Assembly (NCBI GenBank): GCA_963678705.1
Contig: OY783221.1
Coordinates: 2,046,001-2,110,000 of the forward strand
Reading direction: 5' to 3'
DNA length: 64,000 nt
From: Panorpa germanica
Lineage: Eukaryota > Arthropoda > Insecta > Mecoptera > Panorpidae
A program made the position numbers and the translations under genes. Shown piece by piece: positions 60,680 to 63,165 of the stretch (position 1 is its first letter; every line of letters starts with the position of its first letter). Below the pieces are notes generated by a model. The model was given only the letters and a program-made list of their open reading frames with translations. It had not been told where the DNA came from and did no database searches.

Positions 60680-63165
60680 ATGGCAGATCAGGTATGTTTT
60701 AGAGAACTCTTTATATATGTGATTTAAAAATCAAATAAAATTAAAAGTGAAACATATAATATATAAATAAATGCAAAAAGTTAAAGTGGTTAAATATTCT
60801 ATTCTTGATATAAATTTAGAAAACATTTTTTTTGCTTTAAAATTATTTAATACACGTGTTTTATTCTTTGACTTGTTTGTAAAATGTTTTGTATTCTTAA
60901 TGATGATATTGACGACGGTCTTCCGAAAGAAATATGTAGATCACACGTCTAACTGAATAAAATACAAAACTTAACCTAAAATTTATCTTAAACTTAAATT
61001 AACCTAAAAAGTTATTTTTCTTGTTTTGAATTATTCATATTTGCAGAATGAGCGTTCATTCCAACGTCAACCAACAATTTTCTTGAATCGTAAGAAGGGT
61101 GTTGGTGGAAGTAGACGCAAGTCTCTTCGTTACCATCGTGAAGTCGGTCTTGGCTTCAAGACCCCACGAGAGGTATGTTCTTAATTTCTTAACATGTTAT
61201 TAATATTAGTTTTATTTACTCACTACAGACGGAAAAAGCTTTTCAAAAACAACTCGGTGTAAACCTGAACCGTAAACAAGGTCTTAAGAAGAAGTCCCTT
61301 CGTCTCCATCGTAGTGTTGGTTTGGGGTTCAAAACTCCACGTGAGGTTTGTTAATATATTACAGGCTCGGTTTGTTGGCGTCAAGCTGACTGCAGGGCAA
61401 TTCTCATGGACTGGTCTTGGTTATTGGTGGTGGCTGTATTTTATTTGCATTCTTGTCTATTTTTGTTACTGATTGACTGAAGAGATTTTAATATTTCTTG
61501 CAAAAAAAGTTATGTTACAATCTTAAAAGCAATAAAAAATGGACAAGAATGGAAAGAAGTAGCTTTATTATTGTATTTGGGTATCAAAAACTGTTATCAT
61601 CTTTATTTATGCTCCATTGTTTGTTTCCACATGGCTTGTCCGATTGGATCTCATTGTTGTGAAATTAAATTGGTGGTAGATATTTTCACTTTCTGAATAG
61701 TATATCATATATTTGTTGGAGAAGGTCCACCAGCTCAATTGCCTTTGTAAATCATTATATTGGTGTTGTTGATCTTCTCTTGAAAGTTCCATTAAAAACC
61801 ATCTGGTCTACAGATTTTATTGGTCTACAGATCAAATGTTTCAGACATTTCAAATATTTGTAAAACATTTTATTTTGTAAAATAAAAGCTTCCAAATTGC
61901 TTAATTTAAAACAGCTTTATTATCTATCATTTTATTTCATTACGGATTTATTCGCTTTTATTTTATAAAATAATTCTTTGCTGATCTTTGTATTTCAGGG
62001 AGCGCATGTTGCAGGAATTCTACTCCATATATAATTCTATTTCAGCTTTTAATATTATATATACTACAAACCTATTGCATGAAGTAAAATATGTATTAAC
62101 AAAATATATTTGCATGAGGTCTATATATTATTAAAATAAACGCAAATAGTTAAATTAATTTTAAACAGAGTTTTGTCGTACTTTCTATATTCAATAATTT
62201 TCCGTTCATTGAAGAAATAGGGAAAGTTGTAATTTGTAATGATTGAATACAAGACTGTATACGACAGAGCGTTAAAATCAGTTTAACTTTGCAACTGTAT
62301 CTAATCTTATATATGTAAAATGTTATAAAATATTACTAATTCTATATGGTATATTTATTATATATATAAAATTCTGTTGTATGTTATGGTCAAGTAATTT
62401 AGTAAACATTTTAAATGATGAAGACAACGACGGTCTACTGACACACATATGACGATAAATTTCGAAACCAATTCTGATAAAAATGTTTACTTAAATATAA
62501 CTGAATCATACGTACAAATTTAGTTCTAATATATTTCTTTAATATATACAGTTCTAAATTCGTATTTATGATTCCTGGTGTATGGTAGCTTATTTGAACA
62601 ATTACTTCAACAAGATCTCTTACTATATTGTTTGTTTGTTTTCCATAGGCAATTGAGGGAAGCTACATCGACAAAAAATGCCCATTCACCGGTAATGTAT
62701 CCATTAGAGGTCGTATCCTTACTGGGGTTGTACAAAAAATGAAAATGCAGCGTACAATTGTCATCAGACGTGATTACCTGCATTATATAAGAAAATACAA
62801 CCGTTTTGAAAAGAGACATCGCAATATGTCTGTACATTTGTCACCATGCTTCAGGTAATTAACTAACTGCTATAGTTTAATGTATTTGCATTTTTCAAAT
62901 GATGAAAAACACGACGGTCTACTGATACATAACTGATGATATCACTTCTAAACCAAATTTCTGAAACTTTATTCTAATTTCCAAGTTTATATGAATAAAT
63001 AATATGTACATACTCTTATGCTTCATCATTTTATGTTTCAGGGATGTTGAAATTGGAGATGTTGTTACAATTGGAGAATGTCGACCACTTTCCAAAACAG
63101 TCAGATTCAACGTCTTGAAAGTTACGAAGGGTCAAGGATCCAAAAAGGGCTTCAGAAAATTCTAG
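60680..63165 (+). CDS. RpS11: 40S ribosomal protein S11 with duplicated alternative exon 2
   Basis: Exons: 60680-60691 (MADQ), 2A 61047-61172, 2B 61229-61345, 3 at 62649-62854, 4 at 63042-63165. 2A (42 codons, [20 protein letters not shown] ... [10 protein letters not shown]) and 2B (39 codons, [20 protein letters not shown] ... [10 protein letters not shown]) encode the same part of the protein, and both are bounded by phase-0 introns, so either alone completes S11: 155 or 152 residues, against about 155 in flies and 158 in humans. The remainder is highly conserved ([72 protein letters not shown]). The 56-nt intron between 2A and 2B is very short. Including both would insert 39 residues and give a 194-residue protein, which is unlikely to fit the ribosome. 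S11 (uS17) is a component of the small subunit that binds 18S rRNA. Introns 1, 3 and 4 host C/D snoRNAs. Likely AATAAA signal at 63180. Confidence 0.95.
60888..60968 (+). ncRNA. C/D box snoRNA, SNORD35-like, copy a (intron 1 of RpS11)
   Basis: C box ATGATGA (60900-60906), guide GACGACGGTCTT just before a degenerate D' CCGA (60923-60926), and D box CTGA (60953-60956). The flanks TTTTGTATT and AATACAAAA can pair as the terminal stem. The guide is complementary to the conserved 28S rRNA segment AGACCGUCGU, the site of U35. Confidence 0.7.
61047..61172 (+). other. RpS11: RpS11 exon 2A (alternative exon candidate)
   Basis: Preceded by TTTGCAG and followed by GTATGT, phase 0 on both sides. Closest in form to the vertebrate exon (QPTIFLNRK, then [18 protein letters not shown]). 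Confidence 0.85.
61229..61345 (+). other. RpS11: RpS11 exon 2B (alternative exon candidate)
   Basis: Preceded by TCACTACAG and followed by GTTTGT, phase 0 on both sides. Encodes a shorter version in which the GxGG segment of 2A is replaced by QGLKK. The reading frame is intact, and the invariant NRK, KSLR and [10 protein letters not shown] positions are kept, so it is under coding constraint rather than a dead duplicate. Confidence 0.85.
62401..62493 (+). ncRNA. C/D box snoRNA, SNORD35-like, copy b (intron 3 of RpS11)
   Basis: C box ATGATGA (62415-62421), guide ACGACGGTCTA directly before D' CTGA (62438-62441), C' TGACGA (62450-62455), D box CTGA (62474-62477). A perfect 12-bp terminal stem is formed by AGTAAACATTTT upstream and AAAATGTTTACT downstream. 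The fifth guide nucleotide from D' is the G that would pair with the methylated C of UAGAC in 28S rRNA, as for vertebrate U35. Confidence 0.85.
62890..62975 (+). ncRNA. C/D box snoRNA, SNORD35-like, copy c (intron 4 of RpS11)
   Basis: C box ATGATGA (62899-62905), guide CACGACGGTCTA directly before D' CTGA (62922-62925), C' TGATGAT (62934-62940), D box CTGA (62961-62964). All 12 guide bases complement 28S UAGACCGUCGUG. The terminal stem is weaker than in copy b. Confidence 0.8.

What the first reader, a model, noticed from the sequence alone, without database searches (positions are those of the whole stretch)
61047..61345. RpS11 has two tandem, apparently mutually exclusive versions of exon 2
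Seen directly: two adjacent exons (126 and 117 nt, both phase 0/0) encode the same conserved segment of S11, ending in the identical [10 protein letters not shown], and either one alone gives a normal-length protein. They are separated by a 56-nt intron, near or below what insects usually splice, which by itself would enforce a one-or-the-other choice. Both frames are intact and keep the invariant residues, while differing in the basic segment (GVGGSRRK versus QGLKK) expected to contact 18S rRNA. Inference: the species may build two ribosome types that differ in S11, by tissue, stage or condition. I do not know of a description of mutually exclusive exons in this core ribosomal protein.
Basis: partly seen in the sequence, partly recalled or inferred. 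Interest (0 to 1): 0.9.

Follow-up and report, generated by a model that had tools for sequence, protein, structure and literature searches.

The report
Two alternative exons in ribosomal S11
A probable insect gene for the core ribosomal protein S11 carries two old, intact, interchangeable versions of one exon, so the animal may make two kinds of small ribosomal subunit from one gene; whether it really does has still to be shown in RNA or protein.

Summary
At 61047-61172 (2A, 126 nt) and 61229-61345 (2B, 117 nt) lie two in-phase exons for the same N-terminal segment of RpS11 (uS17), 56 nt apart, each with GT-AG sites. They are homologous (25 of 42 aligned positions identical, E 2e-16) but old: pS 0.73, pN 0.28, and neutral simulation reached the observed conservation in 0 of 20000 runs at each of three distances. 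So neither looks like a recent duplicate, a haplotype artefact or a drifting pseudo-exon. 2A resembles the general eukaryotic form; 2B is nearest the S11 sequence of the Drosophila ribosome models (clade support 88/88), so the duplication probably predates the split from Drosophila. Mutual exclusion is inferred only: there are no RNA data, all four splice outcomes are in frame, and a 56-nt spacer does not by itself forbid 2A-2B joining. Names such as flea 'S11-2' and armyworm 's11 isoform 1' suggest that databases already hold variants; my paper searches found no description of such an exon pair. A known kind of splicing in an unusual host gene.

The parts
60680..60691 (+). RpS11 exon 1, coding part (MADQ), donor GTATGT
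60692..61046 (+). intron 1 (355 nt), with a box C/D snoRNA-like element at about 60894-60960
61047..61172 (+). exon 2A (126 nt, phase 0/0), general eukaryotic type, [42 protein letters not shown]; donor GTATGT
61173..61228 (+). 56-nt spacer; six YTNAY branch-point matches 12-50 nt from the 2A donor
61229..61345 (+). exon 2B (117 nt, phase 0/0), like the Drosophila S11 sequence, [39 protein letters not shown]; donor GTTTGT
61346..62648 (+). intron 2B-3 (1303 nt), with a box C/D snoRNA-like element at about 62409-62483
62649..62854 (+). exon 3
62855..63041 (+). intron 3 (187 nt), with a box C/D snoRNA-like element at about 62893-62967
63042..63165 (+). exon 4, coding part to the stop codon

Best explanation
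RpS11 carries an old tandem duplication of exon 2, and each mRNA takes one of the two copies. Exon 1 to 2A to exon 3 gives the general eukaryotic form of uS17 (155 aa); exon 1 to 2B to exon 3, skipping 2A, gives a form like the Drosophila S11 sequence (152 aa). Shown: both exons, their splice signals, their frames, and conservation far beyond neutral drift. Inferred: that both are spliced, and that joining 2A to 2B is disfavoured because the branch point for 2B lies close to the 2A donor, the choice then being set by relative splice-site strength and trans-acting factors. Inferred more weakly: that small subunits with different uS17 N-termini serve different tissues or stages.
For: Both exons are open, phase 0/0, with GT-AG sites. 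25 of 39 aligned codons encode the same residue, 12 of those 25 by a different codon; pS 0.73, pN 0.28, dN/dS about 0.13 with dS near saturation. 0 of 20000 neutral runs at each of three distances keep an open frame and 25 identities. GC3 of 2A (0.36), 2B (0.36) and exons 3-4 (0.37) agree, against 0.21-0.28 GC in the four introns. 2B's best solved relative is the Drosophila S11 sequence, 2A's are others; 2B and Drosophila group at 88/88. Candidate branch points lie 12-50 nt from the 2A donor, at or below the spacing of about 50 nt named for human in vitro and vertebrate systems (PMC6692369, PMC7969005, passages). Indirect: RpS11 was one of few canonical proteins differing between Drosophila tissue ribosomes, enriched in head 80S (PMC8887423, passages).
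Against: No RNA or protein data for this species. In-frame double inclusion is not excluded. Any branch point in a 56-nt intron is near the donor, and insects commonly splice short introns (recalled), so the steric argument is weak. No competing RNA pairing was found: in 5 of 5 duplex tests 26 to 58 of 60 shuffles were as strong; the stretch 61047-61345 as a whole folds somewhat more strongly than shuffles (-77.0 against mean -66.6, sd 5.9), while the spacer and the donor region fold less. The 2B-Drosophila grouping rests on 44 columns, 0 of 7 inner branches is at the tool's strong level, and 2A and 2B as sisters are not rejected (p-AU 0.123). The Drosophila head result is for RpS11 as a whole, not for an isoform.
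Confidence: 0.72

Rival explanations
1. Only one exon is used in practice; the other is spliced rarely or not at all and is kept intact by chance or by a minor role.
For: The 2B donor (GTTTGT) pairs least well with U1 of the four donors (-5.6 kcal/mol against -6.4, -7.8 and -8.1), and the 2A acceptor has the lowest pyrimidine share of the four (0.59 against 0.71-0.76). No RNA data exist here.
Against: An unused exon drifting since synonymous saturation would not keep its frame and 25 identical residues: 0 of 20000 runs at each of three distances.
Confidence: 0.13
2. Both exons are included together in some or most mRNAs, giving a 194-aa S11 with a doubled N-terminal segment.
For: The spacer has GT-AG ends and the 2A+2B product is in frame; an apparent 69-nt intron lies in the neighbouring gene, and a human 56-nt intron is used as a splicing model substrate (listing).
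Against: The S11 chains of the Drosophila and 9eho models are 155 and 157 aa, without the doubling. The branch point would lie within 50 nt of the donor.
Confidence: 0.08
3. The switch is real but serves to tune the amount of S11, for example by autoregulation in which S11 binds its own pre-mRNA, rather than to make specialised ribosomes.
For: Ribosomal protein L10a is reported to switch splice-site choice on its own pre-mRNA (stated in PMC12862383, passage).
Against: All four splice outcomes are in frame, so none is marked for decay by a premature stop, which such tuning commonly uses (recalled). Selection on the protein of both exons points to both proteins being made.
Confidence: 0.07

Closest known systems
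Mutually exclusive exons enforced by branch-point position: alpha-tropomyosin (named in passages) and OGDH exons 4a/4b (PMC7969005, passages)
   Same: Tandem alternative exons with a short intervening intron and candidate branch points within about 50 nt of the upstream donor.
   Different: The host gene is a core ribosomal protein; the spacer is only 56 nt; exclusion and branch points are not measured here.
Drosophila Dscam exons 17.1/17.2 (steric hindrance plus RNA structure; seen as a reference title and a passage)
   Same: Insect pair of alternative exons with proposed steric exclusion.
   Different: No competing pairing between spacer, introns and exons was found here.
Ribosomal-protein paralogue switching in Drosophila gonads (PMC8887423, passages)
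   Same: Two versions of one ribosomal protein as a source of ribosome heterogeneity.
   Different: There two genes, here two exons of one gene; there shown by proteomics, here not shown.
Flea 'Ribosomal protein S11-2' (A2IAD8; PMC8831700, passages) and armyworm 'ribosomal protein s11 isoform 1' (PMC3629120, passage)
   Same: The names imply more than one S11 form in other insects.
   Different: I saw no sequences, so whether they correspond to 2A and 2B is untested.

Membership tests
Eukaryotic RpS11 / uS17 | Ribosomal_S17_N and Ribosomal_S17 domains along the protein | tested here: met
   Both forms above Pfam cut-offs; best PDB S11 chains at E 1.1e-82 (form A) and 8.3e-79 (form B)
Homologous mutually exclusive exon pair | Adjacent exons of similar length and homologous sequence | tested here: met
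   126 and 117 nt, 56 nt apart, E 2e-16
Homologous mutually exclusive exon pair | Same phase and compatible splice sites, either exon alone giving a whole protein | tested here: met
   Phase 0/0, GT-AG, 155 and 152 aa
Homologous mutually exclusive exon pair | Exactly one exon in each mature mRNA | not testable with these tools
   No RNA data; double inclusion and double skipping are both in frame
Steric exclusion by branch-point distance | Branch point of the downstream exon too close to the upstream donor | tested here: inconclusive
   Six YTNAY matches 12-50 nt from the donor; branch point not mapped, insect threshold not measured
Exclusion by competing RNA structures | Intronic pairing stronger than chance | tested here: not met
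   In 5 of 5 duplex tests 26-58 of 60 shuffles were as strong; the 299-nt exon region as a whole folds about 1.8 sd below its shuffles; one species only
Conserved exon pair across insects | Both exons present in related genomes | not testable with these tools
   No insect genome reachable; scans of viral and prokaryote collections gave none

The most novel reading that the evidence does not exclude
Insects have kept, since before the split of this lineage from Drosophila, a splicing switch inside a single core ribosomal-protein gene that makes two structurally distinct 40S subunits used in different tissues; the unexplained enrichment of RpS11 in Drosophila head ribosomes could be one sign of it.
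Probability: 0.18. Interest if true: 0.85.

Novelty: new member of a known kind. Interest (0 to 1): 0.58.

Why it matters
Ribosome heterogeneity is mostly sought in gene paralogues and modifications (from general knowledge). An old exon switch in a core ribosomal protein would let two ribosome types be compared at one locus, by deleting either exon, and it gives isoform-specific tryptic peptides (for example QPTIFLNR for 2A and QLGVNLNR for 2B) that could be looked for in proteomes of this species, with the matching peptides in other insects. In D. melanogaster RpS11 is listed with one gene and as a haploinsufficient Minute locus (PMC2246290, passages), so a splicing switch would be a way to two forms there without a second gene.

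Tried and rejected
Related loci: viral contigs with form A and with form B gave no relative (41 and 10 pattern matches, 0 confirmed); genome contigs with form A gave 2 relatives among 47 pattern matches (L001, L002). Both are eukaryote-type S11 sequences in contigs filed as bacterial MAGs and of no use for comparing insects. No whole genome is held for the window. So the age of the duplication was not tested on insect genomes.

Papers: eight searches aimed at S11 variants or exon pairs in ribosomal proteins and two at exon catalogues and mechanism. No listing showed a description of mutually exclusive exons in RpS11. Lists were capped (20 of 87; 20 of 35), and most listed papers were not opened; of the 9 papers only PMC12862383 was opened (passages; RPS11 appears there only as an expressed gene of a ciliate). 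Word look-ups found no RpS11 in the main text of PMC3228551, PMC3923563, PMC6071210 and PMC7954323. PMC7567386 concerns the mitochondrial S11; PMC1876217 has no S11 in its main text; PMC11802352 gave nothing of use. Two papers looked for by DOI are not held.

Competing RNA pairing: no signal in the duplex tests, in which only one strand of each pair was shuffled. A gathering-level Rfam search of 58000-64000 had no match. Taking the four Drosophila ribosome models as four proofs of a 2B-type protein was rejected: 6XU6-8 were modelled from 4V6W and share one S11 sequence. My first report attempt and notebook entry 2 gave the first peptidase intron as 68 nt, the length of a stretch I had chosen by eye; one search gives 69.

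Full report
What is there. The + strand at 60680-63165 encodes ribosomal protein S11 (uS17) in exons 1 (60680-60691, coding part), 2A (61047-61172), 2B (61229-61345), 3 (62649-62854) and 4 (63042-63165), with introns of 355, 56, 1303 and 187 nt. Taking 2A alone gives 155 residues, 2B alone 152, both 194, neither 113; all four are in frame with one terminal stop. Both single-exon proteins exceed the Pfam cut-offs for Ribosomal_S17_N and Ribosomal_S17. tblastn shows no third copy of the exon under E 1 and no second S11 gene in the window.

Is it more than chance? 2A and 2B align with 25 identities over 42 positions, E 2e-16. Of 39 aligned codons, 25 encode the same residue and 12 of these use a different codon; 45 of 117 bases differ; pS is 0.73 and pN 0.28. 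The Jukes-Cantor dS (2.8) is near saturation and means only 'large'; dN is 0.35. In neutral simulations from 2A at 0.8, 1.0 and 1.5 substitutions per site, 16-20% of runs had no stop, but 0 of 20000 at each distance also kept 25 identities. GC3 is 0.36 in both exons and 0.37 in exons 3-4, while the four introns have 0.21-0.28 GC. The duplication is therefore old, and both copies have been held by selection on the protein. This speaks against a recent duplicate, a haplotype artefact and a dead exon; it does not prove present use.

Which copy is which? Against solved structures, the 2A segment scores best with 9eho (46.9 bits) and 7oya (46.3), and 37.6 with the Drosophila sequence (62 matches up to E 10, 60 shown). 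The 2B segment scores best with the Drosophila sequence (41.5 bits), then 9eho (33.2), then the other 56 of 58 matches at 28.8 or less. That 4V6W is the D. melanogaster embryo ribosome is stated in PMC8887423 (passage); its S11 sequence is shared by 6XU6-8, which were modelled from it, so this is one observation. 2B and Drosophila share QxGVNLNRK, where 2A and most of the chains shown in alignments have QPT(I/V)F; one chain shown (4bts) has GVF and one (7pzy) HIF. A tree of 10 segments (44 columns) groups 2B with Drosophila at 88/88, below the tool's strong level, and 2A and 2B as sisters are not rejected (p-AU 0.123). I read this as a probable, not proven, origin before the split from Drosophila. 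Whether Drosophila also keeps a 2A exon could not be tested.

How the choice might be made. The 2A donor (GAG/GTATGT) pairs with U1 somewhat better than the 2B donor (GAG/GTTTGT), -6.4 against -5.6 kcal/mol; exons 1 and 3 have -7.8 and -8.1. The 2A acceptor has the lower pyrimidine share, 0.59 against 0.71 for 2B. The spacer has six YTNAY matches, at 12, 20, 31, 42, 46 and 50 nt from the 2A donor and so 44 to 6 nt from the 2B acceptor; the one 25 nt from the acceptor is 31 nt from the donor. A spacing of about 50 nt between donor and branch point is named as needed for efficient assembly in human and other systems (PMC6692369, passages), and human OGDH exons 4a/4b are held apart by branch points 25-41 nt from the donor (PMC7969005, passages). 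Steric exclusion of 2A-2B joining is thus plausible. It is weak evidence: any branch point in a 56-nt intron is close to the donor, insects commonly splice short introns (recalled; an apparent 69-nt intron lies in the neighbouring signal peptide peptidase gene), and frame and decay do not enforce exclusion. Tests for competing pairing were negative: in 5 of 5 duplex comparisons 26 to 58 of 60 shuffles were as strong. The stretch 61047-61345 folds more strongly than its shuffles (-77.0 against mean -66.6, sd 5.9), while the donor region and the spacer fold less strongly (-6.1 against -12.3; -1.0 against -3.2); I draw nothing from this with one species.

Evidence from elsewhere. PMC8887423 (passages) reports RpS11 as one of the few canonical proteins differing between Drosophila tissue ribosomes, enriched in head 80S; isoforms were not resolved in what I read, so a link to exon choice is speculation. 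PMC8831700 (passages) lists 'Ribosomal protein S11-2' of X. cheopis among flea proteins of differing abundance, PMC3629120 (passage) lists 'ribosomal protein s11 isoform 1' in fall armyworm, and PMC1929063 (passage) uses the label RpS11-PC. These names suggest that variant S11 entries already sit in databases; I saw none of their sequences. In D. melanogaster RpS11 is one gene and a Minute locus (PMC2246290, passages). No search listing showed a description of mutually exclusive exons in RpS11 (limits in Tried and rejected).

Verdict. The feature is real and old. The most likely reading is a homologous mutually exclusive exon pair giving two S11 proteins (0.72). That they make functionally distinct ribosomes is open. 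As a mechanism it is a known kind; the host gene makes it interesting.

Noticed in passing
window 60894-60960, 62409-62483, 62893-62967 (+): Three related box C/D snoRNA-like elements, one in each long RpS11 intron and none in the 56-nt spacer, sharing ATGATGA and ACGACGGTCT. Best Rfam C/D matches at E 0.36, 0.054 and 0.058, each below its gathering score; none at gathering level. Either exon choice leaves all three in introns.
   Followed up: partly
window about 58912-60260 (-): Signal peptide peptidase gene (Peptidase_A22B, E 5.5e-93) divergent from RpS11, with apparent introns of 69 nt (59991-60059) and 161 nt (58979-59139).
   Followed up: partly
window 22704-23045 (+): Fragment resembling the zinc-binding end of a LINE reverse transcriptase (zf-RVT, E 9e-4, below the curated cut-off). 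It reminds me of elements of ant and wasp genomes (recalled, untested).
   Followed up: no
window 37404-38291 (+) and 56124-56423 (-): Open frames weakly matching zf-AD (E 1.6e-5) and UPF0449 (E 8.5e-6), both just under the curated cut-offs.
   Followed up: no
L001:5001-5372 and L002:5001-5470: Eukaryote-type S11 sequences inside contigs filed as Crocinitomicaceae and Verrucomicrobiaceae MAGs, the second in several frames as if split by introns: probable eukaryotic contamination of those assemblies.
   Followed up: partly
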